A stretch of DNA of 33,461 bases, from positions 1 through 33,461 of the forward strand of contig CAMKGX010000017.1 in NCBI GenBank assembly GCA_946412355.1, read 5' to 3'. Positions 1-24,867 of this stretch are shown piece after piece. Both the position numbers and the translations under genes were made by a program. Each line of letters begins with the position of its first letter. The stretch's first letter is position 1. The notes below the pieces were generated by a model. It had not been told where the DNA came from. It saw only the letters and a list, made by a program, of their open reading frames with translations, and did not search any database. This stretch comes from an uncultured Clostridia bacterium. Its GTDB lineage: Bacteria > Bacillota > Clostridia > Oscillospirales > Oscillospiraceae.

Positions 1-1603
1 CGTCGATCTCGGCGTTGACCACGTCCTTTTCCAGGCGGAAGTTGGGGATGCCGGTAACCATCATACCGCCGGGGACAGCGTCCTTTTCAAACACCACGGG
101 GGAATAGCCCTCGATGGCCAGGAAGTAGGCGCAGGAGAGGCCGGCGGGGCCGGAGCCGATGATGGCAATCTTCTGGTCAAACTTCTCGCGGGTGGAGGAG
201 TTCATGGGCGGGACATAGTGGTGCTCCGCCTTCAAATCCTGGGCGGCGATGAACTGCTTGATATCGTCGATGGCCAGGGCCTCGTCCACGGTGCCCCGGG
301 TACACTCGTCCTCGCAGTACTTGCGGCAGATGGCGCCGCAGACGGCGGGGAAGGGATTGTCCTTCTTGATGAGCTCCAACGCCTCCCGGTACTTGCCCTC
401 GCCGGCCAGCTTGATATAGCCCTGGATGCCGATGTGCAGGGGGCAGGCGGCCTTGCAGGGGGCGGTGCCGGTGGGCCAGGTCTGGATGACGCCGTTCTCG
501 TTCTTATAATTCCAGTTCCACTTGTCCTCGCCCCAGACGTTGTTGTCGGGCAGGGGCTGCTTGGGATACTCCATCTCGCCGTGGCTGGTGCACAGCTTCT
601 GGCCCAGGCGGACGGCGCCGGCGGGACATACCTCCACGCACTTGCCGCAGGCCACGCAGTTCTCCGTGGTGACCTGGGCGGTGTAGGCGGAGCGGGACAT
701 ATTGGGGGTGTTGAAAAGCTGGGAGGTGCGCAGGGCGTTGCACACGCCCACGGCGCAGTTGCACAGGCCGAAAATCTTATTCTCGCCGTCGATGTTGGTA
801 ATCTGGTGGACGTAGCCACGCTCCTCGGCCTTGTGGAGAATCTCCATGGCCTCATCATAGGTGATGTCGTGGCCCATGCCGGTCTCGCGGCAGTAGTCGG
901 CAAAGTCGCCCACGCCGATGCACCAATACTGCTCGATGTCGCCGGAGCCCTCGCCGCGGATGCGCTGCTGCTTGCGGCAGGAGCAGATGCCCACGCCGAT
1001 GTGGCCCTCGTACTTCTTCAGCCAGTGGCTCAAATGCTCCACGGGCAGGGACTCACAGTTGGCGGGAATGGCCTGCTCCACGGGGATGACGTGCATGCCG
1101 ATGCCGGCGCCGCCGGGAGGCACCATCTGGGTGATGCCCGCCAGGGGCAGGTAGGTCATGCGCTCGAAGAAGTCGGCCACCTGGGGGGTGACGGGGGAGA
1201 TCTCCGGCCGCATGGTCATGATCTCGGCGCTACCGGGCACGAACATATCCAGCACCCAGCGCTTCTCATGGTTGGGGTTCTTGCCGTCCAGATTTTCGAA
1301 ATGCCACTCCACCAGACTGGCCTGGCACAGGGCCTCCAGCACCAGCGCAAGGCGCTCGTCATCCAGACCGGACAGGGCCTTCAACTGGGCGAAGGTCTTG
1401 GGCTTGCGCTTGCCCATTTGCAGGGCCACGTCCAGACAGTCGTCGGCCACGTCCTTGCCGTAGCGGCGCTCGGCGTACTGGAGGCCGCAGTCGATGCCCC
1501 AATACTCGGGGGACTCGGTGGACATCTTCTCCAGGCCAAGGAGGATCTCCTTGCGGTCGGTGATGATTTTACCTAATTTGAAAATTTTTTCGTCGCGGGT
1601 CAT
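1..1603 (-). CDS. Large Fe-S/FAD oxidoreductase, GltD-like (copy 1, C-terminus cut by window edge)
   Basis: The first 534 codons are inside the window; the frame is open to base 1. The start at 1603 has a GAAAGGAG ribosome binding site. In order it shows an N-terminal helical region, a Cys-rich domain (CSCRKQQR, then a CNC...C group), a ferredoxin-type 4Fe-4S motif (CVACGKCVEVCP), a second Cys-rich domain typical of GltD and dihydropyrimidine dehydrogenase N-termini (CKAACP, CGAICRKYCEDEC), then an FAD-binding Rossmann motif (IIGSGPAGLSCAY) and the GltD-type GGMMVTGIPNFRLEK. The family passes electrons between NAD(P)H, FAD and Fe-S clusters in the cytoplasm; the partner here is unknown. It is a clear paralogue of the next gene, 45 bp away in the same direction, and shares long identical peptides with it. 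It is probably the last or next-to-last gene of the leftward operon from 7469. Family call is firm; substrate is not known. Confidence 0.88.
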   Translation of the reverse strand, partial: MTRDEKIFKLGKIITDRKEILLGLEKMSTESPEYWGIDCGLQYAERRYGKDVADDCLDVALQMGKRKPKTFAQLKALSGLDDERLALVLEALCQASLVEWHFENLDGKNPNHEKRWVLDMFVPGSAEIMTMRPEISPVTPQVADFFERMTYLPLAGITQMVPPGGAGIGMHVIPVEQAIPANCESLPVEHLSHWLKKYEGHIGVGICSCRKQQRIRGEGSGDIEQYWCIGVGDFADYCRETGMGHDITYDEAMEILHKAEERGYVHQITNIDGENKIFGLCNCAVGVCNALRTSQLFNTPNMSRSAYTAQVTTENCVACGKCVEVCPAGAVRLGQKLCTSHGEMEYPKQPLPDNNVWGEDKWNWNYKNENGVIQTWPTGTAPCKAACPLHIGIQGYIKLAGEGKYREALELIKKDNPFPAVCGAICRKYCEDECTRGTVDEALAIDDIKQFIAAQDLKAEHHYVPPMNSSTREKFDQKIAIIGSGPAGLSCAYFLAIEGYSPVVFEKDAVPGGMMVTGIPNFRLEKDVVNAEID

Positions 1604-1648
1604 TTGGTGCTCTCCTTTCAAAATGGGGAAATTTGGCTCGGGAAAAAA

Positions 1649-4462
1649 TTACTGCTCCGTGGGATAATCGGACTTGCCGGTGATCTTTTTCTTGAGAATC
1701 TTCATGCCGCGTTTCAGGGCGTAGGGGCCCACCACCTTCATCATCTCCTCGGCGGTGTGCATGTCGCTGGCGGCAGGCAGGTCGCGGGTAAGGTGGATGG
1801 CGTCGAACTGGCAGCGGGTGGTACACAGGCCGCAGCCGATGCACTGGTTCAAATCCACGGTGGTGGCGCCGCACTTGAGGCACCGCCCCGCCTCCCGCTT
1901 CACCTGCTCCTCGGTGAGGGGCAGGCGCAGGTCGTCGAAGGTGGCGGTGGCGTCGCCGGGGCGCAGGCCGGGCATCTGGCGCTGGGCGTTGTCGTAGCTC
2001 TCCACCTTGATGTCGTCACGATCCAGCTCGATGAAGGTGCGCAGGTCGCGGCCGATGGTCAGGCTCTGGCCGGGGTGGACGTAGCGGTTGATGGACACGG
2101 CGGCCTCACGGCCGGCGGCGATGGCGTCGATGACGAACTTCTGCCCCGTGTACACGTCGCCGCCCACGAAAATATCGCTCTCGCCGGTTTGCAGCGTGAC
2201 GGGGTCGGCCTGGATGGTGCCGTTTAAGCGGTAGGCCACCTTGGTGCCCTTCAAAAGGTCGCCATGGTCGGGGCGCTGGCCGATGCAGTAGAGCACCGTA
2301 TCACAGGGCTGGGAAAGGGTGTCGTTATCGTCAAACTTGGGGTCAAAGCGGCCCTCCGCGTTCTTCACGCTGAGGCAGCGGCGGAAGTGGATGGCGGACG
2401 CCTTGCCGTCCTCGGTGTCGATGGCGGTCTGGCCCCAGCCGGCGTGGATGGTGATGCCGTCGCGCTCCACGTCCTCCCGGTCCTCGGGGCCCATGGGCAT
2501 GTGGTCGTAGTCCTCCAGGCAGTAGAGGTCCACCTTGGCGGCGCCGGCCCGGACGGCGGTGCGGGCGATATCGGCCGCGATGTTGCCGCCGCCGATGACC
2601 ACCACGTTGCCGCTCAGGCGCGCCGTGCTGTCCTGGTTGACGCGGCGGGCAAATTCGATGCCGGGGAGGACGCCCTGGGCGTCGTCGCCGGGGATGCCCA
2701 GCTTGCCGCCGCTCTGGAGGCCGGTGGCGATGAAGAACGCCTTATAGCCCTGGGCGCGAAGCTGGTCAAGGGTGACGTCACGGCCCACGTCCACGCCGCA
2801 GCGAATCTCGGCGCCCATGCGGCGGATGATGTCGATCTCCGCCTCGATGACCTTTTTCTCCAAACGGAAGTTGGGGATGCCGTTCATCAGCATGCCGCCG
2901 GGGCGCTGCTCCCGGTCAAACACGGTGACGGGGTAGCCCTCCTGGCGGAGATAGTAGGCGCAGCTCAGGCCCGCCGGGCCAGCGCCGATGACGGCGATGG
3001 GGAAGTCGGTCCACTGCTGCCCCTCCATATTCTGGCACTTGGGGACGTAGTTCTCGGGATGCTGAAGCTCCCACTGGGCCAGGAACTTTTTAATCTCATC
3101 AATGGCCACAGGCTTATCGATGGTGCCCCGGGTGCAGCGGTCCTCGCAGCGGCGGTTGCACACCGCGCCGCAGACGGCGGGGAAGGGGTTATCCTGGCGG
3201 ATGAGGCGGATGGCCTCGTCATACCGGCCCTCGGCGGCCATGCGGATATAGCCCTGGACGGCCAGATGGGCGGGGCAGGCGGTCTTGCAGGGGGAGGTGC
3301 CGGAGTCGTAGCAGTTCAGCTTATTGTGGTCGCGGTAGTCCCGATCCCAGCGGTCGGGGCCCCACACGTTGTCGTCGGGCAGGTCGTGCATGGGGTACAT
3401 GACCTTGGAGCCGTCCTTGCGGCACAGCTTCTGGCCTAAGCGGGCGGCGCCGGCGGGACATACCTCCACGCACTTGCCGCAGGCCACGCACTTCTCCGCG
3501 TCCACATGGGCGCGGTAGGCGCTGCGGGACATATTGGGGGTGTTGAACAGCTGGGAGGTACGCAGGCCGTAGCAGCTGCCGGGGGAGCAGTTGCAGATGC
3601 CCACGATGCGGTCTGGGCCGTCCAGATTGGTGATCTGGTGGACGTAGCCCTTTTCCTCGGCACGCCGGATGATTTCCATGGCCTCTTCCCGGGTGATGTA
3701 ATGGGCGTCCTTGCCGGACTCCACCAGGAACTCGGCGATGTCGCCCAGGCCGATGCACATATAGCCCTCGATGTCGCCCACGCCCTCGCCCCGGACCCGC
3801 TGGGCCTTGCGGCAGGCGCAGACCATGGCGCAGAACTTGTCGTACTTTTGCAGCCAGTGGCTCAAATGCTCCACGCTTACCGAGGTGGAGGCGCCGTCGA
3901 TGGCCTGCTCCACGGGGATGACGTGCATGCCGATGCCGGCGCCGCCGGGGGGCACCAGCTTGGCCGCCAGCTCCAAGGGCTCCTGGGGGGCCAGGTTGAA
4001 CATGGTGGCCACCTCGGGGTTGGTGTCGGTGAGGGTGGGATGCTCCACCATGTACTCGCCGGAGCCCACCACCCATTTGGGAATCCAATACTGGATGTGC
4101 TGGTCGGGATTATCCCGGTTCTGCTCGATGATGCCGATCCACAGCAGGTGGTCGATGATCTTCTGGGCCTCCGGCTCGGTCATGTGGTTGGCCTGGGCCA
4201 GCCAGGCGGTGGTGCGGCCGGTGCGGCGCTTTTGGAAGCTGATCATGAACCTGACCTCATCCTTGGTCAGCAGCCGGTCCAGAATCCAGAAATCCATGTG
4301 GTTTTCCTTCATGCCGCCGGGGAGCTTGCGGGGGATGTTGTCGGTAATCATGCGGGAGAGCTTCAAAAGCAGCTTTTTCTTCTCGGGGTCGTCGCAGTGA
4401 TGGTCGGTAACGGGGTAGTCGCGCTCGTTGACGTGAATCATGGGGTTGACTTCTTTTACCAT
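1649..4462 (-). CDS. Large Fe-S/FAD oxidoreductase, GltD-like (copy 2, complete, 937 aa)
   Basis: I chose the start at 4462 (MVKEVNPM) because AGAGGAGAGAGGG precedes it; the frame could be read further upstream, but that would overlap hypB. Layout: residues about 60-150 a winged-helix-like region, 211-297 a Cys-rich domain (CAMVCACRK, YMC, CNC...C), 325-335 a 4Fe-4S motif (CVACGKCVEVCP), 392-445 a second Cys-rich Fe-S domain (CKTACP, CGAVCNRRCEDRC), 488-545 the first FAD Rossmann fold (VIGAGPAGLSCAY, GGMLMNGIPNFRLEK), about 635 the second NAD(P) Rossmann fold (VVIGGGNIAADIAR), and a C-terminal ferredoxin motif CIGCGLCTTRC. This is the NADPH-dependent glutamate synthase small-subunit fold enlarged with extra Fe-S domains, as seen in soluble or bifurcating anaerobic oxidoreductases. 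No glutamate synthase large subunit is nearby, so glutamate synthesis is unlikely. It sits 28 bp downstream of hypB. Electron donor and acceptor are unknown. Confidence 0.9.
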   Translation of the reverse strand: MVKEVNPMIHVNERDYPVTDHHCDDPEKKKLLLKLSRMITDNIPRKLPGGMKENHMDFWILDRLLTKDEVRFMISFQKRRTGRTTAWLAQANHMTEPEAQKIIDHLLWIGIIEQNRDNPDQHIQYWIPKWVVGSGEYMVEHPTLTDTNPEVATMFNLAPQEPLELAAKLVPPGGAGIGMHVIPVEQAIDGASTSVSVEHLSHWLQKYDKFCAMVCACRKAQRVRGEGVGDIEGYMCIGLGDIAEFLVESGKDAHYITREEAMEIIRRAEEKGYVHQITNLDGPDRIVGICNCSPGSCYGLRTSQLFNTPNMSRSAYRAHVDAEKCVACGKCVEVCPAGAARLGQKLCRKDGSKVMYPMHDLPDDNVWGPDRWDRDYRDHNKLNCYDSGTSPCKTACPAHLAVQGYIRMAAEGRYDEAIRLIRQDNPFPAVCGAVCNRRCEDRCTRGTIDKPVAIDEIKKFLAQWELQHPENYVPKCQNMEGQQWTDFPIAVIGAGPAGLSCAYYLRQEGYPVTVFDREQRPGGMLMNGIPNFRLEKKVIEAEIDIIRRMGAEIRCGVDVGRDVTLDQLRAQGYKAFFIATGLQSGGKLGIPGDDAQGVLPGIEFARRVNQDSTARLSGNVVVIGGGNIAADIARTAVRAGAAKVDLYCLEDYDHMPMGPEDREDVERDGITIHAGWGQTAIDTEDGKASAIHFRRCLSVKNAEGRFDPKFDDNDTLSQPCDTVLYCIGQRPDHGDLLKGTKVAYRLNGTIQADPVTLQTGESDIFVGGDVYTGQKFVIDAIAAGREAAVSINRYVHPGQSLTIGRDLRTFIELDRDDIKVESYDNAQRQMPGLRPGDATATFDDLRLPLTEEQVKREAGRCLKCGATTVDLNQCIGCGLCTTRCQFDAIHLTRDLPAASDMHTAEEMMKVVGPYALKRGMKILKKKITGKSDYPTEQ

Positions 4463-4490
4463 GGCCCTCTCTCCTCTCGCTGTGGGTGAT

Positions 4491-5159
4491 TTATTGTTTC
4501 CACTCCGCCACCTGGCGGCGCAGCCAGTCGGTCCAGGCGTCCATGCCCTCCCCGGTCTTGGCGGAGACGGGGAAAATGGGCAGACCGGGATGGCGCATGT
4601 GGGCGTACTCGGTGAGCTTATCCAAATCGAAATCAAAATAGGGCAGGACGTCGATTTTATTAACAATCAGCACGTCCGCCACCTCGAACATGAGGGGGTA
4701 TTTCAGGGGCTTGTCGTGGCCCTCGGGGACAGAGAGGATGACGGCGTTCTTCACGGCGCCGGTGTCGAACTCCGCGGGGCACACCAGGTTGCCCACATTC
4801 TCCAGCACCACCAGGTCCAAATCCTCGGTGCCGAACTCGGTGAGGCCCTGGCGGGTCATATCGGCGTCCAGATGGCACATGCCGCCGGTGTGGAGCTGGA
4901 TGGCGCGGGCGCCGGTGGCGGCGATGGCGGCGGCGTCCACGTCGGAGTCGATGTCCGCCTCCATGACGCCGATGGAAAGGTCGTCCTTCAGCGCGGCGAT
5001 GGTGCGCTTCAAGGTGCTGGTCTTGCCGGAACCGGGAGAGGACATGAGGTTCAGCAGGAAGGTGCCCTGCTGCTTGAGCTGCTGGCGCAGGCGGTCGGCG
5101 TCGGCGTTATTGTCGGCAAAGATGCTCTCTTTCAGCTCGATGATGCGGATGGATTCCAT
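4491..5159 (-). CDS. hypB: HypB, nickel-insertion GTPase
   Basis: 222 residues. HypB is a SIMIBI-class GTPase that delivers nickel to [NiFe]-hydrogenase precursors. The P-loop SPGSGKTS is at 41-48, the NKID guanine-specificity motif at 167-170, and the HypB signature ENVGNLVCPAEFD at 120-131. The G-domain metal site is present: Cys95-His96 in GGMCHLDAD and Cys127. The N-terminal CxxCGC motif and the His-rich stretch of some HypBs are absent. It lies 4 bp downstream of the acyl-ACP thioesterase and just upstream of the Fe-S flavoprotein genes, so it appears cotranscribed. No hydrogenase subunit, hypA or hypC is visible in the window. UreG is a relative, but the signature favours HypB. Confidence 0.92.
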   Translation of the reverse strand: MESIRIIELKESIFADNNADADRLRQQLKQQGTFLLNLMSSPGSGKTSTLKRTIAALKDDLSIGVMEADIDSDVDAAAIAATGARAIQLHTGGMCHLDADMTRQGLTEFGTEDLDLVVLENVGNLVCPAEFDTGAVKNAVILSVPEGHDKPLKYPLMFEVADVLIVNKIDVLPYFDFDLDKLTEYAHMRHPGLPIFPVSAKTGEGMDAWTDWLRRQVAEWKQ

Positions 5160-5163
5160 GGTA

Positions 5164-5877
5164 TTACTCCTTATTATTATACTGCAAACTCATGCGGAAG
5201 CAGGGGCGGTCCGTCTCCCCGGAGAGAAAGATGCGCTCCCCCTCCCTGCCCCACTGCACACGCAGCGTCTCGCCCCGGCGCACCTCGGAGAGGTACTCCA
5301 CCTGGATGGCCCGGGGGGCTGACTGGCAGGGCAGATTGTCCTCCACTACGTCAAAATAGCGGGTGTTGTTCATGTGGCCGTTGATGTCCACGTAGCTGTA
5401 AGGCACGGTGAAGGTGAAGGACTCCGTGGTGGGGATGGGGACGATCTTGGGCAGCAGGGGCAGCTCGCCGCCCCGCTTCACCCCTGGGATGGCCACGCCG
5501 TACTCCTCCGGGAAGGCCACCGACCGGCTCTCGCCGTCCATCAGCGTCCACACGGCGGAGGCGCGGAGCAGCGTGTTCCCCGCCTCGTCGGTGATTTCAT
5601 CGTACCGGGGGAACAGGACACGCAGGGTGTCGCCGGGCCAGGAGGTGTGGACGATGCGCTCATCATATACCGGCATCCGGGCAATCTCCACGTACTGGCG
5701 GCCCACCACCCACAAAAGGCCCCGATCCAGCGTCTTATCCCGGCCCATGCCCAGGGACTCGGTGTGGCGGATGGCGGCGTTTTGCAGCAGGGCGAAAAGG
5801 GTGGACGTGCGCAGCCGGCGGCAGCAGTCCACGTGCTGGCTGCCCAGCAGCAGCTCCCGGCGGTAGCAATCAGCCAT
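5164..5877 (-). CDS. Acyl-ACP thioesterase (FatA/FatB-type double hotdog)
   Basis: 237 residues, the usual size for bacterial acyl-ACP thioesterases, which hydrolyse the thioester of acyl-ACP to free fatty acid in the cytoplasm. Two hotdog halves are visible: residues about 1-125 (the TLFALLQNAAIRHTESLG helix, then DRGLLWVVGRQYVEI) and 150-237. The second half carries the catalytic Asn/His motif DINGHMNNTRY at 164-174 and the downstream acidic pattern VEYLSEVRRGE. It overlaps the upstream acyl carrier protein gene by 8 bases, which argues for translational coupling and for this carrier protein as its substrate. Acyl chain preference cannot be read from the sequence. Confidence 0.9.
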   Translation of the reverse strand: MADCYRRELLLGSQHVDCCRRLRTSTLFALLQNAAIRHTESLGMGRDKTLDRGLLWVVGRQYVEIARMPVYDERIVHTSWPGDTLRVLFPRYDEITDEAGNTLLRASAVWTLMDGESRSVAFPEEYGVAIPGVKRGGELPLLPKIVPIPTTESFTFTVPYSYVDINGHMNNTRYFDVVEDNLPCQSAPRAIQVEYLSEVRRGETLRVQWGREGERIFLSGETDRPCFRMSLQYNNKE

Positions 5878-6121
5878 TGGGCAGGCGCTTCTCGATGGCG
5901 TCGATGACCTGGCCCAGGGTGGACAGCTTGCTCCACTGGCGGTTGGGGATGCGGACGTCGAACTCCGCCTCCAGGCGGCAGATCACCAGAATGAAGTTCA
6001 TGGAGTCCATGCCCATGTCGGTGTTGACCACGGTGTCCTCCTGCAAGTCCACGCCCTCCAACTCGGGGACGCTGTCGTAAATCACCTTTTTGGTGCGCTC
6101 TAAAATCTCACTCCTGGTCAT
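5870..6121 (-). CDS. Acyl carrier protein (dedicated, not the housekeeping AcpP)
   Basis: 83 residues, the size and charge pattern of an acyl carrier protein. The phosphopantetheine attachment serine is Ser40 in MGMDSMNF, replacing the more common DSLD/DSLE. It carries an acyl chain as a thioester on a 4'-phosphopantetheine arm. It overlaps the acyl-AMP ligase gene upstream by 14 bases and the thioesterase downstream by 8 bases, so the three form a load-carry-release set. A housekeeping acpP would normally sit beside fabD, fabG or fabF, none of which are next to it. Which phosphopantetheinyl transferase activates it is not visible. Confidence 0.92.
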   Translation of the reverse strand: MTRSEILERTKKVIYDSVPELEGVDLQEDTVVNTDMGMDSMNFILVICRLEAEFDVRIPNRQWSKLSTLGQVIDAIEKRLPNG

Positions 6122-7469
6122 AGCCGATCCTTCCTTTCAATTCCCAGCGTTTTACCTTGCCGGTGGCGGTGCGGGGCAAGGGCTGCGTCTGACGCAAAAT
6201 GGCGGCAATCTGCTGGCCACGGGGCCGGGCGGCCTGGTAGGGGGCCAGGCACTGCCAAAGCTGCTCGTCGCTGCGCTGGTCGCCGTAGAGGGCCAGGGCC
6301 ACCCGGCCCCGGTGGAGCACCAGGGCAAAGTCGCCGCCCCCCAGGAGGGCGGCCAGCTCCCCCTCGCACTCCGGCAGGAACTGCTTGGTGCCGTCGGGGA
6401 GCACCAGCACGTCTTTTTTCCGGCCGATCACGTGCAAAAGGCCCTTGTCGTCCATGACACCCAGGTCGCCGGTGCGAAGCACGCCGGCCTGGATGGCGAT
6501 GTCGGTGTCGATGGGCCGCTTATAATAGCCCTGCATCAGGCAGGTGGGTGCGTAGACCAATATCTCCCCGTCCTCGGCCAGGGTGACGGTGTCGTCAGGG
6601 CAGACGGTCATGGCATAGGGCTCATCCCCCAGGGACAATGCCACGCCGGAGCTGGTCTCCGTAAGGCCGTAGCCGAAGCTGACCCGGACGCCGGTGGCCC
6701 GGGCGGCCTCCAACAGGGAGGCGGGGCAGTCCCCCGCGCCTACCAGCACCAGTTTAAGGCCGGGATTCAGCGCCTGCTGCCGCAGCAAAAAGCCCAGCAG
6801 CAGCGGCACCGCCGCCAGCGCCGTGGGGCGGAAGAAGGCGCAGTCGTCCAGATAGTGGCGCCGGCCCCGGCCCAGGGCCACGCAGGCGCCGCAGGAGAGG
6901 CCCCAGAGAAGGCCGCACACAAAGCCGAACACATGGCACAGCGGCAGCTGGCACAGCAGCACGTCGCCGCGCTCCAACGGCAGCAGGGCGCCGCCGTTAT
7001 AGGCGCTGGCGCAGAGGCTGCGCTCCGTCAGCACCACCGCCTTGGACTGGGAGGTGGTGCCGGAGGTGAAGAAGAGGAGCTTCCCCGCGCCGTCCTTCAC
7101 CCCGCCATGGAGAGTGGGGGTCAGGCTCTCCACCAAATCCACATCGCCCCAGAGCCGGTCTACGTCGGTATACTCCAGCAGGCCCGGCAGCTTTTCCTCG
7201 GGGGTGTCCTCGTCCAAAAGCACCACCTGAATACCTGAGAGCACAGCGCCGAAGATGGTGAGCACGCACTCCACGGTGCCGTCGGTGAACACGCCCAGGC
7301 AGGTGCAGCCGCTGCGGCGCAGCGCCTCCGAGCGGCGCTCCGCCGTGGTGAGCAGGGTGAGATAGTCCATGGTCTCCACCCGGCCGGCGCGCTCATACCG
7401 CAGGGCGGGGGCCTCCGGGGTGGTGCGGGCATAGTGGGTCAGCAGCTCGGCAAAGTCGAAAAAGCGCAT
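6108..7469 (-). CDS. Acyl-AMP ligase (acyl-ACP synthetase-like, ANL superfamily)
   Basis: 453 residues. Adenylate-forming enzymes activate a carboxylic acid with ATP to acyl-AMP, then pass it to CoA or a carrier protein. Visible core motifs: TSGTTSQSK at 135-143 (phosphate-binding loop), YGLTETSSG at 267-275, TGDLGVMDDKG at 333-343, the hinge GRKKD at 349-353, and the C-terminal catalytic lysine in RTATGKVKRWEL (about 433-444). It is shorter than typical acyl-CoA synthetases (about 500-550), in keeping with a ligase loading a carrier protein. The start is supported by GGGAGG upstream. It is the first gene after the promoter at 7545-7573 and overlaps the carrier protein gene, its likely acceptor. 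Fatty acid as substrate is inferred from the thioesterase and the divergent isomerase. Confidence 0.9.
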   Translation of the reverse strand: MRFFDFAELLTHYARTTPEAPALRYERAGRVETMDYLTLLTTAERRSEALRRSGCTCLGVFTDGTVECVLTIFGAVLSGIQVVLLDEDTPEEKLPGLLEYTDVDRLWGDVDLVESLTPTLHGGVKDGAGKLLFFTSGTTSQSKAVVLTERSLCASAYNGGALLPLERGDVLLCQLPLCHVFGFVCGLLWGLSCGACVALGRGRRHYLDDCAFFRPTALAAVPLLLGFLLRQQALNPGLKLVLVGAGDCPASLLEAARATGVRVSFGYGLTETSSGVALSLGDEPYAMTVCPDDTVTLAEDGEILVYAPTCLMQGYYKRPIDTDIAIQAGVLRTGDLGVMDDKGLLHVIGRKKDVLVLPDGTKQFLPECEGELAALLGGGDFALVLHRGRVALALYGDQRSDEQLWQCLAPYQAARPRGQQIAAILRQTQPLPRTATGKVKRWELKGRIGYDQE

Positions 7470-7544
7470 GAATACGGCCCTCCCGATGGTGTCTTTTGCC
7501 CCCGGCGTCCATTTGGGCGCAAGCGGGGAGTCTACTTAATAAAG

Positions 7545-7573
7545 AGTATAGCATATCCCGGCGGTAATGCAAA
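7545..7573 (-). promoter_or_regulatory. Sigma-A promoter for the leftward acyl/redox operon
   Basis: On the minus strand a -35 TTTGCA (7568-7573) is followed by 17 bp and a -10 TATACT (7545-7550) preceded by TGC, an extended -10. The expected start of transcription is near 7538, giving a leader of about 70 nt before the ligase gene. Confidence 0.7.
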
Positions 7574-7619
7574 GACAGATTTTCGCTTTTTTTACAAAAA
7601 ATGATGCAATTCGCATTTT

Positions 7620-7638
7620 GGTGTGATACAATTACACC
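7620..7638. promoter_or_regulatory. Imperfect palindrome over the -10: candidate operator 1
   Basis: GGTGT (7620-7624) and ACACC (7634-7638) form an inverted repeat with 9 bp between them, with extra symmetric AT positions inside. It covers the extended -10 completely, so a bound protein would block the rightward promoter. The regulator is not in the window. Confidence 0.45.
7624..7632 (+). promoter_or_regulatory. Extended -10 promoter for the isomerase gene
   Basis: TGATACAAT is an extended -10 element (TG-N-TACAAT). No good -35 is seen 17 bp upstream (ATGCAA), as is usual for extended -10 promoters. The transcript would start near 7639, leaving a leader of about 48 nt before the ATG at 7687. 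Confidence 0.6.
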
Positions 7639-7643
7639 AAGAG

Positions 7644-7663
7644 TTGTGAAGACGGCTTCACAA
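7644..7663. promoter_or_regulatory. Perfect 8-bp-arm palindrome: candidate operator 2
   Basis: TTGTGAAG (7644-7651) and CTTCACAA (7656-7663) are perfect inverted arms around ACGG. It lies just downstream of the predicted start of transcription for the isomerase gene. It resembles Rex and CRP sites in its arms, but the spacing is 2 bp longer than either. It could also fold as a hairpin in the leader RNA. Confidence 0.5.
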
Positions 7664-7686
7664 TAACACATGAGGAGGTTCTCAGC

Positions 7687-9078
7687 ATGGATAAGAATAT
7701 GCGCATCTGCATCATCGGCGGCGGCCCCGCCGGCCTTTCCGCCGGCATGTACCTGGAGAAGAAGGGGTACGAGAACTACACCATCCTGGAGAAGAACGAC
7801 CGGGTGGGCGGCAAGTGCTGGTCGCCCCACTACAACGGCCGGCGCTACGAGATGGGCGCCATCATGGGCGTGCCCTCTTACTACGCCGTGAAGGACGTGG
7901 AGGATTTCTGCGGCATCACCCACGACGGCCCCAAGCTGAACCGCAACTACAAGGACAAGACCGGCAAGGTCATCGAGCCCTTTGAGCCCAAGAAGAACAT
8001 TCTCAAGATTCCCCGGCTGCTGAAGATGAAGAATCAGCTGAAGGTGTTCGGCGAGCTGCTGGAGACCAAGTACAAGGGCTACGACGTCAACGGCCACCGG
8101 GGCGTGGCGGAGGGCCGGTACGACGGCTTCGCCGTGACGCCGGGCCGTGAGCCCGTCCAGGGCGAGAACCCCAACCTGAAGGATCTGTGCCTGCCTTTCA
8201 GCGAGTTCTGCCGCAAGAACGGCGTGGAGCTGGTGCAGGACATCTGGATCGGGCCCTACACCTCCTTCGGCTACGGCTATTTCGACGAGATTCCCGCTGC
8301 CTACGTGCTGAAATACCTGGACTTCCAGACCACCATGAACTTCGTGAAGGTGAACCTGTGGACCTGGAAGGAGGGCACCCAGTACATCTGGGAGCAGCTC
8401 AACGCCCATCTGAAGAACCCCGCCCGGTTGAACAGCGCCATCTCCGCCGTGGAGCGCCGGGACGGCAAGGTGTACGTCACCGTCAACGGCCAGGTGGAGG
8501 AGTATGACAAGATCATTGTCACCGCGCCGCTGTACGTGCCCAACAAGGAGAGCCGCAGCGACGGCCTGGTGGGCATGGTGGACTACTTCGACGCCCGGGA
8601 GGACGAGAAGGCCCTGTTCAGCAAGATCGACTACGAGCGCTACGACGTGCTGGCCGTGGAGACCAAGCCCGAGGATCACCCGGAGATCAGCTACTACGTG
8701 TTCGACAACATGGTGAAAGAGCGGCTGGGCCACCTGATGGTGTATTACCGCCGGTGGAAGGACACGGTGGACCAGGTCATCACCACCTACGCCCTGCGCA
8801 AGCACAAGGATATGGCGGAGGTGCCCTACGACAAGTGCCGCCAGATGGTGCTGGACGACCTGAAGACCATGCGCAACCCCGCCTCCAACGTGATCAACGA
8901 GTGGTCGGTGTACTACTTCCCCCACGTCTTCTCCGCCGACTATGCCGACGGCTGGTACGACAAGGTGGAGGCCATGCAGGGCAAATACGACACCTTCTAT
9001 GCCGGCGAGATCATGTCCTTCGGCGACATGGACGAGACGGCGGAGTACTCCCGCGAGCTGGTGGAGCGCTTCTTCTAA
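7687..9078 (+). CDS. Polyunsaturated fatty acid double-bond isomerase, PAI-like flavoprotein
   Basis: 463 residues, started by GAGGAGG before ATG 7687. The N-terminal FAD-binding motif IIGGGPAGLSAGMYLE (9-24) is followed by GGKCWSPHYNGRRYEMGAIM (41-60). From memory, the protein matches the P. acnes linoleate isomerase (PAI, about 424 aa) along its length: GRRYEMGAIMGVPSY, a KYKGYDVNGH region, FGYGYFDEIPAAYVLKYLDF, LWTWKEGTQ, CRQMVLDD, and the C-terminal TFYAGEIMSFGDMDE are all shared or nearly so. PAI moves a double bond of linoleic acid to give 10t,12c conjugated linoleic acid, using FAD without net redox. This protein is about 40 residues longer, with extra sequence around residues 98-120 and 137-160. 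It stands alone after a divergent promoter; a strong hairpin follows. The substrate is inferred by family; linoleic acid or a related plant fatty acid is most likely. Confidence 0.85.
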   Translation: MDKNMRICIIGGGPAGLSAGMYLEKKGYENYTILEKNDRVGGKCWSPHYNGRRYEMGAIMGVPSYYAVKDVEDFCGITHDGPKLNRNYKDKTGKVIEPFEPKKNILKIPRLLKMKNQLKVFGELLETKYKGYDVNGHRGVAEGRYDGFAVTPGREPVQGENPNLKDLCLPFSEFCRKNGVELVQDIWIGPYTSFGYGYFDEIPAAYVLKYLDFQTTMNFVKVNLWTWKEGTQYIWEQLNAHLKNPARLNSAISAVERRDGKVYVTVNGQVEEYDKIIVTAPLYVPNKESRSDGLVGMVDYFDAREDEKALFSKIDYERYDVLAVETKPEDHPEISYYVFDNMVKERLGHLMVYYRRWKDTVDQVITTYALRKHKDMAEVPYDKCRQMVLDDLKTMRNPASNVINEWSVYYFPHVFSADYADGWYDKVEAMQGKYDTFYAGEIMSFGDMDETAEYSRELVERFF

Positions 9079-9084
9079 GCTTAC

Positions 9085-9121
9085 TTATTTGAGGGGCGCG
9101 TAAATCGCGCCCCTCAAATAA
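9085..9121 (+). terminator. Strong hairpin after the isomerase gene
   Basis: TTATTTGAGGGGCGCG (9085-9100) pairs perfectly with CGCGCCCCTCAAATAA (9106-9121) across the loop TAAAT. The 16-bp stem begins 6 bases after the stop codon. There is no clear T run after it, so termination may be partial or the hairpin may protect the mRNA end. Confidence 0.65.
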
Positions 9122-9123
9122 CC

Positions 9124-9281
9124 TTCACATAAATGGCACAGCCATTTATGTGAAAATGGAATGGCAGCCCACTTCGCGCACTCGCTTCCGCTCGCACACT
9201 GCGTGGGCTGAGAAGTAAAATTTCTGACGCGCATGTCGTCAGAAATTTTATTTCACTGGTTCGCGCCTTGCGAGGCGCGAA
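9124..9281. repeat. Run of further hairpins in the 269-bp gap
   Basis: Four more inverted repeats follow one another: 9124-9137 with 9141-9154 (14 bp, loop ACA); 9165-9172 with 9203-9210 (CAGCCCAC/GTGGGCTG); 9216-9229 with 9237-9250 (14 bp, TAAAATTTCTGACG arm); and 9260-9267 with 9274-9281 (TTCGCGCC/GGCGCGAA). No coding capacity is seen here. Such runs resemble intergenic palindromic elements rather than a terminator alone. Confidence 0.75.
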
Positions 9282-9297
9282 ATCTGCGATGCTTTTT

Positions 9298-9303
9298 TAT
9301 AAT
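9298..9303 (+). promoter_or_regulatory. Possible -10 box before the saturase-like gene
   Basis: A perfect TATAAT lies 45 bp upstream of ATG 9348, but no -35 or TG extension accompanies it. It could give the gene its own promoter, or the gene may be read through from 7687. Confidence 0.35.
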
Positions 9304-9347
9304 GGAAGGGGTGCGTGCCACGCCCCCTTTTGAAAGAGGGAACGAAC

Positions 9348-10877
9348 ATGAAATTTTACCGAGACCACTATGACGTGATCGTCATCGGCGGGGCTCTGGC
9401 GGGCTTGAGCGCGGCGCTGATGCTGGCCGACAAGGGCAAGAGCGTGCTGGTGCTGGAGCGCCACAATCTGCCCGGCGGCCTGGCCACCAGCTACGTCCGG
9501 GGCGGCATCGAAATCGAGGCCACCCTCCACGAGATGATGTCCATCGGCGAGAAGAACCACCGGCTGAAGGTGGGCAAGTTCTTCGACGACATGGGCGTGG
9601 ACGTGGAATGGCTGAAAGTCCCCGAGGCCTATCACGCCTCCCTGCCGGGGCTGGAGGTGACGCTGCACCCGGGGCTGGAGACCTTCGCCCGGGAGGTGGA
9701 CGGCGCCGTGCCCGGCACCTACGACAAGGTGCTGGCGGTGCTGCAGCTGTGCGACCGGGTGTTCAACAGCGTGAATGAGTTGAGCATCCACCCCATGAGC
9801 AAGCCCCAGATGCTGTTGAAGCACCCCGACTTTGTGAAAACCGCCGGCTACTCCACCCAGGAGGTGCTGGACACCTTCGGCCTGCCCCAGAAGGCCCTTG
9901 ACCTGCTGGCCCCCTACTGGATTTACGTGGGCACCGGGTTCCGGGAGCTGCCGTTTACCATCTTCTCCGTGCTGATGGCGGACTACGTGGGCTACGGCTC
10001 CTACATCCCCAAGAAATTGAGCCACGAGATGAGCCTGAAAATGGCGGAGCGGGCGGAGGCCATGGGCGTGCAGATTGAGTACCGCCAGCACGTGGACAAG
10101 ATTCTGGTGAAGGACGGCCAGGCCTACGGCGTGCGCACCGCCCGGGGCGACGAGATTTACGGCGACTACGTCATCTCCTCCGCCTACCCCAACAGCGTGT
10201 ACACCCACATGGTCGAGCCGGCAGACGCCGTGCCCCCCGAGGCCATCAAGATGGTGAACGGGCGGCGGCTGAGCCTGACGGCCTTCTCGGTGGTGATGAT
10301 TCTGGACAGGCCCGCCGAAGAGCTGGGCATCAAGGATTACAGCGTATTCCGGGGCGACACCATGGACACCGACAAGCTGTATGGCGAGCTGAAGGGCCTG
10401 GGGCCCTACCGCTATCTCACCTGCATCTGCCACAACCTGGGCAACCCCGGCGTGACCCCCGAGGGCACCTGCTCCTACTCCATCACCACCCTGCCCCGGG
10501 TGGATGGTTGGAAAACCGTGTCCGCCGACGAGTACGACAGGGTGAAGCATGAGGTGGCCCGGCAGATGATTGACACCATGAGCGAATATCTGGGGGTCAA
10601 CCTGCTGGATCACATTCTGGAAATCGTCATTGAGACGCCCATGACCGTGGCCCACTACACCGGCATGTGGAACGGCTGCATCTACGGCTACGCCCACACC
10701 ATGGAGGACCACATCGTGGCCCGGCTGCAGACGGCGGAGGCGGAGCGGTTTATCCGGCATCTGGAATTCTCCGGCGCCCACCAGATCAGCGGCGACGGCA
10801 TGGGCCCCGCCGTGACCAACGGCCGCAAGGCGGCGAAAAATGTACTGGATACCATGGCAGAGGAGGCGGCGAAATGA
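9348..10877 (+). CDS. Phytoene desaturase/retinol saturase-like FAD oxidoreductase
   Basis: 509 residues from ATG 9348, which has AGAGGGA upstream; a GTG at 9315 in frame has no such site. The N-terminal dinucleotide-binding segment is DVIVIGGALAGLSAALMLAD (9-28), where the middle glycine of GxGxxG is alanine, then LERHNLPGGLATSY. The C-terminus has the family's FAD-closing segment (HQISGDGMGPAVTNGRKAA). CrtI/RetSat-family enzymes add or remove hydrogen across conjugated double bonds of long lipids. No carotenoid genes are nearby. Beside a PAI-like isomerase that makes conjugated dienes, and overlapping by 4 bases a reductase that could feed its FAD, a role as a conjugated fatty acid reductase is the best inference. 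The reaction direction cannot be read from the sequence. Confidence 0.8.
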   Translation: MKFYRDHYDVIVIGGALAGLSAALMLADKGKSVLVLERHNLPGGLATSYVRGGIEIEATLHEMMSIGEKNHRLKVGKFFDDMGVDVEWLKVPEAYHASLPGLEVTLHPGLETFAREVDGAVPGTYDKVLAVLQLCDRVFNSVNELSIHPMSKPQMLLKHPDFVKTAGYSTQEVLDTFGLPQKALDLLAPYWIYVGTGFRELPFTIFSVLMADYVGYGSYIPKKLSHEMSLKMAERAEAMGVQIEYRQHVDKILVKDGQAYGVRTARGDEIYGDYVISSAYPNSVYTHMVEPADAVPPEAIKMVNGRRLSLTAFSVVMILDRPAEELGIKDYSVFRGDTMDTDKLYGELKGLGPYRYLTCICHNLGNPGVTPEGTCSYSITTLPRVDGWKTVSADEYDRVKHEVARQMIDTMSEYLGVNLLDHILEIVIETPMTVAHYTGMWNGCIYGYAHTMEDHIVARLQTAEAERFIRHLEFSGAHQISGDGMGPAVTNGRKAAKNVLDTMAEEAAK

Positions 10878-12058
10878 AGGTAAAAGGCTTTTTGAAGGAC
10901 GTGGGCGGCGCGTCCCGGGTTACCAAGGCCCGGCTGGCGGCCTTTGCGCAGGCGTCCTCCACCCCGGTGCGGACCGACCCCATCGGCGACGTGGCCCGGG
11001 AGTGGCACCCCGGCAAGCTGGACATGGTGGTGACGGAGATTCGCGACGCCTCCAAGACCGCCAAGACGGTGCGGTTTGAAAAGGTGGGCGGCGGCAAGCT
11101 GCCTCCCTTCTACGCGGGCCAGTTCATGGTGGTGGACTTCCCCATGGGCGACAGCCTCATCTCCCGGCCCTACTCCATCTCCTCCGCCCCCTGGCAGGCA
11201 CGGCAGGAAAAGGGCTTTGTGGAGATTACCGTTCGCCGCTCCCGCGGCGACGGCTTTATCTGCGACCACATCAACGACAACGTGAAGGTGGGCGACACCT
11301 TCCGCTGCCTTATCGGCTGCGGCCAGTTCTACTATGAGCCCCTGCGGGACGCCAGGCACGTGGTGGCCCTGGCCGGCGGCGTGGGCATCACCCCCTTTGC
11401 CTCCATGGCCCGGGAGGTGGCCCACGGCACGCTGGATATGGATTTGACCATCCTCTACGGCTCTGTGGCCTCCGACGACATCACGCTCCGGGATGAATTG
11501 GCGGCGCTGGAGGGGGAGCACGTCCACATCGTCCATGTGCTGTCCGGCGACGAGCCGGACTGGCAGGGCGAGCGGGGCTTTTTGACGGCGGAGCTGATCC
11601 GCAAGTATTCCGCCCCCGACACCACCTATTTCATCTGCGGCCCCCAGGCGATGTACCGCTTCCTCCGGGAGGAGCTGAAGAAGCTGGACATCCCCCAGCG
11701 GCGGGTGCGGTTTGAGGTGTTCGGCCAGGCCAAGGATATCACCGTCTTCCCCGGCTATCCCCAGGAGTGCAAGGATAAGACGTATCAGCTCACCGTGCGG
11801 CGGGGCATCCACGAGGACGTGATTCCCGCCCGGGCCACGGAGAGCCTGGTGGTGGCCCTGGAGCGGGCGGGCATCCGCATTGAGACCGGGTGCCGCAGCG
11901 GCGAGTGCGGCTTCTGCCGCACCAAGGTGCTGTCGGGCAGCGTGTACATCTGCCCGGAGAACGACGGACGCCGGGCCGCCGACAAGGATTTCGGCTACGT
12001 CCACGCCTGCGCCGCCTATCCCACGTCGGACGTGGTGATTAAGATACCGATTGAATAA
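10874..12058 (+). CDS. FAD/NAD(P)H reductase with C-terminal 2Fe-2S ferredoxin domain
   Basis: 394 residues. The ATG at 10874 overlaps the stop of the preceding gene (ATGA) and follows AGAGGAGG. Layout: a 45-residue N-terminal extension unlike the family, a ferredoxin reductase-type FAD domain (RPYSISSAP at 98-106), an NAD(P) domain (GGVGITPF at 168-175, ICGP further on), and a plant-type 2Fe-2S domain with CRSGECGFC (Cys340, 345, 348) and Cys379. This is the phenol hydroxylase/oxygenase-reductase architecture, which moves electrons from NAD(P)H through FAD to 2Fe-2S and then to a partner. Oxygenases are not expected in an anaerobe and none is nearby; the translationally coupled saturase-like flavoprotein is the likely partner. 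Confidence 0.87.
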   Translation: MKVKGFLKDVGGASRVTKARLAAFAQASSTPVRTDPIGDVAREWHPGKLDMVVTEIRDASKTAKTVRFEKVGGGKLPPFYAGQFMVVDFPMGDSLISRPYSISSAPWQARQEKGFVEITVRRSRGDGFICDHINDNVKVGDTFRCLIGCGQFYYEPLRDARHVVALAGGVGITPFASMAREVAHGTLDMDLTILYGSVASDDITLRDELAALEGEHVHIVHVLSGDEPDWQGERGFLTAELIRKYSAPDTTYFICGPQAMYRFLREELKKLDIPQRRVRFEVFGQAKDITVFPGYPQECKDKTYQLTVRRGIHEDVIPARATESLVVALERAGIRIETGCRSGECGFCRTKVLSGSVYICPENDGRRAADKDFGYVHACAAYPTSDVVIKIPIE

Positions 12059-24249: not shown

Positions 24250-24867
24250 ATGGATCAGAAGACTTTGGTGAATACCCTCATGGGCGATCAAGCCCTGGAA
24301 AGCGTCAGCCGCATGTCCGGCGCGTCCACGCAGCAGGTGCAGCAGGTGCTGTCCGCCGCGCTGCCCTCCCTGCTCCAGGGGGCCCGGCAGCAGGTGGGCA
24401 ACAGCGGCTTTGCCGCCGCCCTGACCGACCACGCCAAGGACGACACCGCCGACCTGGGCGGCTTTTTCTCCCACGTGGACATGACCGACGGCGGCAAGAT
24501 CGTGGGCCACCTCCTGGGCGACCAGGCCGCGGACACCGCCGAGGAGGCGGCGGAGCGGGCCGGACTCTCCACCGCCCAGACGGCGAAAATCATCGCCCTG
24601 GCCGCTCCCCTGCTGATGAGCCTGCTGGGCCAGCAGTCCTCCCAGAGCAGCAGCGGCACCGCCGGCCTCACCTCCCTGCTGGGCGGCCTGCTGGGGGGCA
24701 GCTCCGGCAGCGGCAGCAACACCGCCGGCGCATTGGGCGGCGTGCTGCTGAACCTGCTGGGCAGCCAGACCCAGACCACCTCCACCGGCAAGAAAAAGAA
24801 GAAAAAGCCCACCCAGTCCAACCAGTCCGCCGACCTGCTGGGCAGCTTCCTGGATTTGCTGAAATGA
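24250..24867 (+). CDS. DUF937-domain protein
   Basis: 205 residues from ATG 24250, with GGAGG upstream; the frame is open much further 5' but crosses both promoters. Helical repeats typical of DUF937 are visible, with SLLQGARQQ early, a VGHLLGDQA segment and AAPLLMSLLGQQ near 125. A low-complexity Gly/Ser/Leu region follows, then a KKKKKK block and a C-terminal DLLGSFLDLLK. No catalytic motif is seen. It overlaps larE by 4 bases, so it is translated together with the lar genes, though no functional link to nickel is known to me. Confidence 0.87.
   Translation: MDQKTLVNTLMGDQALESVSRMSGASTQQVQQVLSAALPSLLQGARQQVGNSGFAAALTDHAKDDTADLGGFFSHVDMTDGGKIVGHLLGDQAADTAEEAAERAGLSTAQTAKIIALAAPLLMSLLGQQSSQSSSGTAGLTSLLGGLLGGSSGSGSNTAGALGGVLLNLLGSQTQTTSTGKKKKKKPTQSNQSADLLGSFLDLLK

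What the first reader, a model, noticed from the sequence alone, without database searches (positions are those of the whole stretch)
1..12058. Candidate anaerobic fatty acid isomerisation and reduction system built of two divergent operons
Seen: a PAI-like isomerase, a CrtI/RetSat-like flavoprotein and a coupled NAD(P)H/2Fe-2S reductase lie divergent from an acyl-AMP ligase, acyl carrier protein, acyl-ACP thioesterase, HypB and two large Fe-S flavoproteins. Known: PAI makes conjugated linoleic acid; RetSat-like enzymes saturate conjugated double bonds; the ligase, carrier protein and thioesterase form a load-carry-release cycle. Inference: the locus detoxifies or respires unsaturated fatty acids, using them as an electron sink. 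I know of no described pathway with this gene set.
Basis: partly seen in the sequence, partly recalled or inferred. Interest (0 to 1): 0.85.

Follow-up and report, generated by a model that had tools for sequence, protein, structure and literature searches.

The report
Candidate rumen fat-saturating gene cluster
A set of neighbouring bacterial genes, kept together in many genomes that come mainly from the digestive tracts of ruminants, may be part of the machinery that rearranges and saturates the unsaturated fats in feed, and it carries an unfamiliar iron-sulphur enzyme that may need nickel helpers.

Summary
The left arm runs on: contig C85 overlaps the window by 55 bp and adds the rest of the second Fe-S flavoprotein and HypA. 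In 80 loci of other genomes (the best of 313), the isomerase is followed by the CrtI-like gene in 78 of 78 testable loci and then by the reductase in 76 of 76; ligase-ACP-thioesterase lies divergently upstream in 67 of 70. Of 80 titles, 67 point to ruminants (37 by a label whose meaning I recall).

The Fe-S flavoprotein (FES) is in all 36 cassette genomes that could be judged, against 8 of 398 of the phylum, and near diverged isomerase homologues in other lineages. HypA/HypB often accompany it, in genomes mostly without detectable [NiFe]-hydrogenase.

Best reading: a rumen biohydrogenation locus. The isomerase makes a conjugated fatty acid, probably trans-10,cis-12 CLA; FES and/or the CrtI-like protein with its reductase reduce it; ligase, ACP and thioesterase load and release. 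No activity was tested. A Butyrivibrio CLA reductase sequence reported in 2007 was not compared.

The parts
7687..9078 (+). PAI: polyunsaturated fatty acid isomerase homologue (FAD, 463 aa)
   Evidence: phmmer to 2b9w E 5e-137; 54% identity, R88 and F168 equivalents kept in 82 of 82
9315..10877 (+). SAT: CrtI/CrtISO-like flavoprotein, candidate conjugated-diene reductase or second isomerase; conserved start probably ATG 9348
   Evidence: TIGR02730 110.6 bits and TIGR02734 84.3 bits, both below cut-off; downstream of PAI within about 0.8 kb in 78 of 78 testable loci
10874..12058 (+). FNR: FAD/NAD(P)H reductase with C-terminal 2Fe-2S domain, likely electron donor of SAT
   Evidence: PF00970, PF00175, PF00111; after SAT in 76 of 76 testable loci; distance correlation with SAT r 0.95
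6108..7469 (-). AMPL: acyl-AMP ligase
   Evidence: PF00501 2.6e-36; motif residues kept in 97% or more of 73 sequences
5870..6121 (-). ACP: dedicated acyl carrier protein, phosphopantetheine serine Ser40
   Evidence: PF00550; Ser40 at 97% or more of 73
5164..5877 (-). TE: acyl-ACP thioesterase (FatA/FatB type)
   Evidence: PF01643 66.3 bits over cut-off 23.7 and PF20791 over cut-off
4491..5159 (-). HypB-type GTPase with intact metal site Cys95, His96, Cys127
   Evidence: TIGR00073 244 bits, cut-off 121; site kept in 48 of 48
1649..4474 (-). FES-A: 941-aa Fe-S flavoprotein; from about residue 385 Nfn/StnB/GltD-like, residues 1 to about 315 a domain without convincing Pfam or PDB match
   Evidence: Cys219, 221, 240, 294, 296, 301 in 75-76 of 76
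1..1621 (-). FES-B: second Fe-S flavoprotein, cut by the contig end; the rest lies on contig C85 (L007), followed there by HypA at L007:2271-2645 minus
   Evidence: complete in L031
7470..7686 (.). Divergent promoter region with two inverted repeats, 7618-7640 and 7644-7663 (the latter with perfect 8-bp arms)
   Evidence: repeats of these sequences found in only 3 of 73 intergenic regions, so specific to the closest relatives

Best explanation
The locus is a rumen biohydrogenation system. Step 1 (supported by homology): the PAI-like flavoenzyme shifts a double bond of linoleic or linolenic acid to make a conjugated acid, most likely trans-10,cis-12 CLA as in C. acnes. Step 2 (inferred): the conjugated diene is reduced, by FES (NAD(P)H through an Nfn-like FAD and Fe-S chain into an N-terminal metal domain matured by HypA/HypB) and/or by SAT with its NAD(P)H/2Fe-2S reductase, giving a trans monoene and perhaps stearate. 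Step 3 (inferred): ligase and ACP capture the fatty acid as acyl-ACP, and the thioesterase releases the less toxic product. Biologically this detoxifies plant-derived polyunsaturated fat and spends reducing power.
For: PAI homology and substrate-site residues. Strong purifying selection on PAI: pairwise identity median 87%, minimum 81% among 81 sequences, while GC3 runs 0.51-0.96 and follows the locus GC, r 0.91. Conserved order. Modules co-vary: SAT-FNR r 0.95, AMPL-TE 0.75. FES in all 36 judged cassette genomes: 24 in the locus and 12 elsewhere, against 8 of 398. Diverged PAI homologues beside or within about 2 kb of FES in 7 of 12 FES loci of the phylum sample; PAI-like in 5 of 7 FES genomes against 1 of 73 others (80 genomes that I picked from that sample). 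Coriobacterial PAI beside FES in 6 of 16 fetched loci. Elsewhere FES with HypA/HypB shares a gene run with oleate hydratase or with a CrtISO-like plus reductase pair. Ruminant origin: 30 of 80 titles name a ruminant or its compartment, 37 more carry a RUG label (meaning of RUG recalled).
Against: No activity was measured. SAT is below the cut-offs of the families shown and could be an isomerase. Regiochemistry is inferred. In the order sample 7 of 9 FES genomes have no PAI at E 1e-10, so FES has other partners. Seven of 16 coriobacterial loci have PAI without any cassette neighbour. FES follows FNR in only 33 of 61, and HypB and HypA are near in only 14 and 15 of 36; the other genomes were not searched for them. 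The 80 loci are the best of 313, which cuts off low PAI identities, and no control scan for the ruminant bias was run. In one search only two candidates per genome were scored, and third FES copies in two genomes were missed there. MAG binning errors are possible for L106 and L107.
Confidence: 0.7

Rival explanations
1. Isomerase only: PAI, SAT and FNR act as successive isomerases (SAT as a CrtISO-type enzyme needing reduced FAD), and nothing is saturated. FES and HypA/HypB serve general redox balance.
For: The best NCBIfam match of SAT is carotenoid isomerase (110.6 bits). PAI stands alone in 7 of 16 coriobacterial loci.
Against: FES goes with PAI at three depths of PAI divergence, which is not expected of a general redox enzyme; the reductase FNR co-varies with SAT at r 0.95, though a reduced-FAD isomerase would need a donor too.
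Confidence: 0.15
2. A membrane-lipid remodelling pathway: the cell activates foreign polyunsaturated fatty acids to acyl-ACP, modifies them and uses the products for its own lipids; the thioesterase only edits the acyl-ACP pool.
For: Dedicated ligase and ACP that co-vary with the thioesterase (r 0.75 and 0.74).
Against: A dedicated thioesterase in 64 of 64 testable loci argues for release; outside the cassette no gene family recurs in more than 8 of 80 loci. Acyltransferases were not searched for by name.
Confidence: 0.1
3. The substrate is another polyene or isoprenoid of plant feed, for example carotenoid fragments, rather than a C18 fatty acid.
For: SAT is nearest to carotenoid enzymes.
Against: PAI is 54% identical to a fatty acid isomerase with the same recalled carboxylate-site residues; acyl-AMP ligase, ACP and acyl-ACP thioesterase are fatty acyl enzymes; elsewhere FES shares a gene run with oleate hydratase.
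Confidence: 0.05

Closest known systems
Cutibacterium acnes polyunsaturated fatty acid isomerase (PAI, PDB 2b9w)
   Same: Full-length homologue, 54% identity, Arg88 and Phe168 kept
   Different: Part of a conserved multi-gene cassette; a stand-alone PAI gene in C. acnes is recalled, not checked
Butyrivibrio fibrisolvens linoleate isomerase and CLA reductase
   Same: Same overall chemistry proposed: isomerise, then reduce with NADH; passages of PMC4478896
   Different: The Butyrivibrio route gives mainly cis-9,trans-11 CLA (PMC12254105, passages); [quoted passage not shown] A reductase sequence was reported by Fukuda et al. 2007 (seen only as a citation) and was not compared
Lactiplantibacillus plantarum CLA-HY/CLA-DH/CLA-DC pathway (abstract of PMC9241672 in the listing)
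   Same: Converts linoleic acid to CLA
   Different: Starts with an oleate-hydratase-type enzyme; no MCRA domain (PF06100) among the nine proteins scanned in this locus
CrtISO, CrtI and RetSat flavoproteins
   Same: Fold family and FAD motif; best matches of SAT; RetSat is recalled and was not compared
   Different: Below the curated cut-offs of CrtISO and CrtI models; follows PAI with its own reductase in 76 of 76 testable loci
NfnB, StnB and GltD flavoproteins
   Same: Profile positions 387-864 of the FES alignment match them
   Different: About 315 further N-terminal residues with six conserved cysteines and no convincing relative in Pfam or the PDB, and HypA/HypB partners
[NiFe]-hydrogenase maturation factors HypA and HypB
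   Same: HypB metal site 48 of 48; HypA His2 and four cysteines 34 of 34
   Different: [NiFe] large subunit not found in 8 of 9 (exception G052) and 22 of 22 genomes searched; HypD not over cut-off in 8 of 9

Membership tests
PAI-type polyunsaturated fatty acid isomerase | Full-length homology to the solved enzyme 2b9w | tested here: met
   E 5e-137, residues 2-463 on 4-423; 54% identity
PAI-type polyunsaturated fatty acid isomerase | Substrate-site residues Arg88 and Phe168 (roles recalled) | tested here: met
   82 of 82 sequences
PAI-type polyunsaturated fatty acid isomerase | Linoleate to trans-10,cis-12 CLA activity | not testable with these tools
   needs enzyme assay
Carotenoid isomerase / phytoene desaturase (SAT) | NCBIfam curated cut-off | tested here: not met
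   TIGR02730 110.6 against 586.9; TIGR02734 84.3 against 238.1
Retinol saturase (SAT) | Closer to RetSat than to other members of the family | not tested
   no RetSat sequence compared
HypB | TIGR00073 cut-off and metal-site Cys-His/Cys | tested here: met
   244 against 121 bits; 48 of 48
HypA | TIGR00100 cut-off | tested here: not met
   76.8 against 88.1 bits, although His2 and the four cysteines are kept in 34 of 34
[NiFe]-hydrogenase maturation set | Hydrogenase large subunit in the genome | tested here: not met
   not found in 8 of 9 (own genome included; G052 has one) and 22 of 22; control genomes rang
GltD / NfnB | Curated cut-off | tested here: not met
   gltA 273 against 471.75; PRK12771 429 against 516
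Acyl-ACP thioesterase | Pfam gathering score | tested here: met
   PF01643 66.3 against 23.7
Lactobacillus CLA-HY system | MCRA hydratase in the locus | tested here: not met
   no PF06100 match among the nine proteins; whole genome not searched for it
Butyrivibrio CLA reductase | Homology to the sequence of Fukuda et al. 2007 | not tested
   sequence not held

The most novel reading that the evidence does not exclude
FES is a new class of NAD(P)H-dependent reductase of conjugated fatty acids whose N-terminal metal site is filled by HypA/HypB, that is, a nickel-dependent C=C reductase outside any hydrogenase. PAI plus FES plus HypA/HypB is the minimal, ancient biohydrogenation unit of anaerobes (Bacillota, Coriobacteriaceae), and the ruminant lineages extended it with SAT-FNR and a load-and-release arm and exchanged it across phyla.
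Probability: 0.33. Interest if true: 0.93.

Novelty: new variant of a known kind. Interest (0 to 1): 0.82.

Why it matters
Saturation of dietary polyunsaturated fat in the rumen shapes the fat of milk and meat. Its bacteria and genes are poorly known. Bacteria making trans-10 intermediates are called unclear, with conflicting or old reports for some cultures (PMC7339423, abstract and passages). A 2024 paper isolates C. acnes AP1 as a t10,c12-CLA former and says that no rumen strain was available (PMC11770317, start of its summary and passages); its reference list names an earlier report for Megasphaera elsdenii. [quoted passage not shown] This cassette offers specific genes and host lineages, so who makes trans-10 fatty acids, and with which enzymes, becomes directly testable by expression, metatranscriptomics or qPCR. 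FES with HypA/HypB in genomes without a detectable [NiFe]-hydrogenase points to an unknown metalloenzyme whichever substrate proves right.

Tried and rejected
Tried without result. Plasmids holding the isomerase: none at E 1e-30. Rfam and tRNA scans of the window: nothing. A search for further genes recurring around the cassette: the largest cluster was the SAT gene itself (11 loci), the next an ABC transporter component in 8 of 80 loci; many loci have short flanks, and only 36 of 80 reach 9 kb on both sides. Conserved operator in the divergent promoter: each of the two inverted repeats occurs in only 3 of 73 regions.

Considered and rejected. HypB as hydrogenase maturation: no [NiFe] large subunit in 30 of the 31 genomes searched. 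Recent transfer as the sole reason for high PAI identity: GC3 follows the host locus. Shared ancestry of the region as the reason for the conserved order: the window's neighbour PPDK lies near in 1 of 36 loci. The first order-level hit G071 suggested that the arms were separate, because its two FES genes lie on other contigs, but its ligase arm is in place (L019).

A faulty pattern flagged HypB proteins as lacking Walker A. The alignment in the same call shows Gly43, Gly45, Lys46 and Thr47 in 48 of 48, so the flag was discarded. In one search loci too short for a test were left out of its denominator (for example 2 of 80 for SAT). For one search I picked 80 genomes of the phylum sample (7 with FES, 4 with DUF5692 only, 69 taken in handle order).
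Full report
What is there. On the plus strand: a PAI-like flavoprotein (PAI, 7687-9078), a CrtI/CrtISO-like flavoprotein (SAT, ORF 9315-10877) and a reductase with FAD, NAD and 2Fe-2S domains (FNR, 10874-12058). On the minus strand: acyl-AMP ligase (AMPL, 6108-7469), ACP (5870-6121), acyl-ACP thioesterase (TE, 5164-5877), HypB (4491-5159) and two Fe-S flavoproteins (FES-A 1649-4474, FES-B from 1621 leftward off the contig). The window is the whole contig C17 of a 2.06 Mb, 92-contig assembly. Contig C85 shares 55 bases exactly with its left end and carries the rest of FES-B and then HypA. Relative L031, 98% identical in PAI, has the same genes uninterrupted in the order HypA, FES-B, FES-A, HypB, TE, ACP, AMPL, then divergently PAI, SAT, FNR, and its FES-B matches both contig pieces at 99%.

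The isomerase. The best solved relative is C. acnes PAI (2b9w), E 5e-137; the next hit is at 2.7e-10. Identity is 228 of 420 aligned residues. Arg88 and Phe168, which I recall as substrate-site residues, are kept in 82 of 82 relatives. Conservation is extreme: among 81 sequences the pairwise identity has median 87% and minimum 81%, while the ligase (72 sequences) has median 55% and minimum 24% and the thioesterase (68) median 49%. Third-position GC nevertheless runs from 0.51 to 0.96 and follows the surrounding locus (r 0.91), so I read this as strong selection on an old resident gene rather than a very recent sweep. The lower bound is affected by the scan, which kept the best 80 of 313 loci.

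The cassette. In those 80 loci, SAT follows PAI in 78 of 78 testable, FNR follows SAT in 76 of 76, AMPL lies divergently within 1.7 kb in 67 of 70 (exceptions L044, L052, L109), ACP follows AMPL in 69 of 70 and TE in 64 of 64; FES comes soon after FNR in 33 of 61. Of 36 loci with 9 kb on both sides, FES is in 24, HypB in 14, HypA in 15, at least one of the three in 25. Outside the cassette the commonest other family is an ABC transporter component in 8 of 80 loci, and the window's neighbour PPDK is near in 1 of 36. So it is the cassette that is conserved rather than the region. Pairwise distances co-vary inside modules (SAT-FNR r 0.95; AMPL-ACP 0.70, AMPL-TE 0.75, ACP-TE 0.74) and less between them (0.26 to 0.64), each above the highest of 200 permutations. 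FNR is therefore likely the electron donor of SAT, and AMPL-ACP-TE a load-and-release unit. Motif residues recalled as catalytic are kept.

Where it lives. Of the 80 record titles as shown, some cut short, 30 name a ruminant animal or compartment, 37 carry the label RUG (recalled: rumen uncultured genomes) and 13 say neither; none shown names a human source. No control scan was run, so part of this may be the make-up of the collection. Titles include Oscillospiraceae, Lachnospiraceae, Mogibacterium, one Coriobacteriaceae (L106) and one Sphaerochaetaceae (L107). The L106 case is backed by three more genomes of its family with 77-85% PAI; two of their short contigs show cassette pieces (L179, L180), the third is too short (L178). 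In an even sample of the window's phylum the isomerase at E 1e-40 was found in 2 of 398 genomes, the own one and one at 34% identity; in the order, in 2 of 197 at E 1e-10, own included.

The Fe-S flavoprotein is the unexpected part. Profile positions 387-864 of FES match Nfn/StnB/GltD flavoproteins. Residues 1 to about 315 match no Pfam family at E 0.001 and nothing convincing in the PDB (best such hits are designed proteins at E 0.04 and 0.08 among the 60 of 110 rows shown), yet hold six cysteines, His279 and four glutamates that are kept in 75 or 76 of 76 sequences. FES is rare in the phylum (8 of 398 genomes at E 1e-130, own included; two candidates per genome were scored) but constant with the cassette: of the 36 loci above, 24 hold FES nearby, and all 12 others have it elsewhere in the genome (these 12 are part of 16 of 16). 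It also accompanies diverged isomerases. From the 7 other FES genomes of the phylum sample 12 FES loci were fetched; 7 have a PAI-like gene beside FES or within about 2 kb (L129-L133 at 21-31% identity to the window PAI, L151 and L152 at 26-27% to the L131 homologue), and the L131 one has PAI 2b9w as best PDB hit at 1e-54. In 80 genomes picked from that sample, PAI-like genes at E 1e-25 occur in 5 of 7 FES genomes and 1 of 73 others, Fisher p 5e-6, or 5e-4 if the three genomes of one family count once. In the family of the L106 genome, 22 of 140 genomes hold a PAI at E 1e-80; of 16 of these fetched, 6 have FES directly beside a 54-56% PAI, 2 show the ruminant-type cassette, 1 contig is too short, and 7 have PAI alone. 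Other FES loci share a gene run with oleate hydratase (L027, 939 bits, cut-off 567), with a distant SAT plus FNR pair (L025), or lie near an old-yellow-enzyme relative (L127; L128 by its like-looking ORF). Against this: in the order sample 7 of 9 FES genomes have no PAI at E 1e-10, so FES also serves elsewhere.

HypA and HypB. At least one of them is near FES in 9 of 10 FES loci fetched from the order sample (the tenth is a contig-end piece) and in 10 of 12 of the phylum sample (L124 and L130 not detected). HypB keeps its metal site in 48 of 48, HypA its His2 and four cysteines in 34 of 34, although the HypA of this locus falls below its curated cut-off. The [NiFe]-hydrogenase large subunit was not found in 8 of 9 order genomes with FES, the window's own included (the exception, G052, is 60% complete and also has HypD), nor in 22 of 22 cassette genomes with HypA or HypB in the fetched locus. 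HypD is not over cut-off in 8 of 9. The control genomes rang. I infer that HypA/HypB serve FES, perhaps delivering nickel to its N-terminal cysteines; no metal was shown.

Mechanism, with its steps marked. Supported by homology: isomerisation of a C18 polyunsaturated fatty acid to a conjugated acid, probably trans-10,cis-12 CLA. Inferred: reduction by FES and/or SAT-FNR; activation to acyl-ACP and release by TE; a benefit by detoxification. In Butyrivibrio, biohydrogenation has been argued to be a detoxification rather than a way to dispose of reducing power (passages of PMC2836310), and NADH oxidation to CLA reduction was reported as 1:1 (passage of PMC4478896). Which enzyme does which reduction is open.

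What is known. The same chemistry is established in Butyrivibrio. A CLA reductase sequence was reported in 2007 but was not found in common databases (PMC4478896, passage), and I could not compare it. [quoted passage not shown] Bacteria making trans-10 intermediates in the rumen are called unclear (PMC7339423, abstract). Ten searches of the held open-access library showed no paper on this gene set in their listings; most subscription papers are not held and bioRxiv is not. I therefore rate it a new variant of a known kind, biohydrogenation with an apparently undescribed gene set, and keep the nickel-dependent FES reductase as the bolder reading.

Noticed in passing
window 24864-27603: larE, larB and larC (nickel pincer cofactor synthesis), over their NCBIfam cut-offs, on the same contig as the HypB-containing arm; a second nickel-related locus, link unknown.
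   Followed up: partly
L027, L126, L129-L133, L151, L152 (beside FES); L134 (beside a PAI-like gene): DUF5692 (PF18948) recurs there; L149, L150 and L153 have it with neither. It is in 10 of 398 phylum genomes, 6 of them among the FES genomes. It was not detected in L030-L109.
   Followed up: partly
L129-L134, L151, L152: A transposase-like helix-turn-helix protein of about 350 aa (HTH_28/HTH_29, tested for the L131 copy only) lies directly beside the distant PAI-like genes; perhaps a domesticated regulator.
   Followed up: no
window 7618-7663: Two inverted repeats (TTGGTGT-N9-ACACCAA and TTGTGAAG-ACGG-CTTCACAA) in the divergent promoter, shared only with the closest relatives.
   Followed up: partly
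L127 11616-12599 and L128 3111-4103: An NADH:flavin oxidoreductase (old-yellow-enzyme family, tested for L127; L128 by eye) next to HypB near FES.
   Followed up: no
intergenic regions of 73 cassettes: TGTGA-N4..12-TCACA occurs in 10 of 73 divergent promoters against a mononucleotide-shuffle mean of 0.1; possible shared regulator.
   Followed up: no
L022, L024, L028, L038, L043, L056, L063 and others: Two tandem HypB-like genes near FES or the cassette in several genomes; why two is unclear.
   Followed up: no
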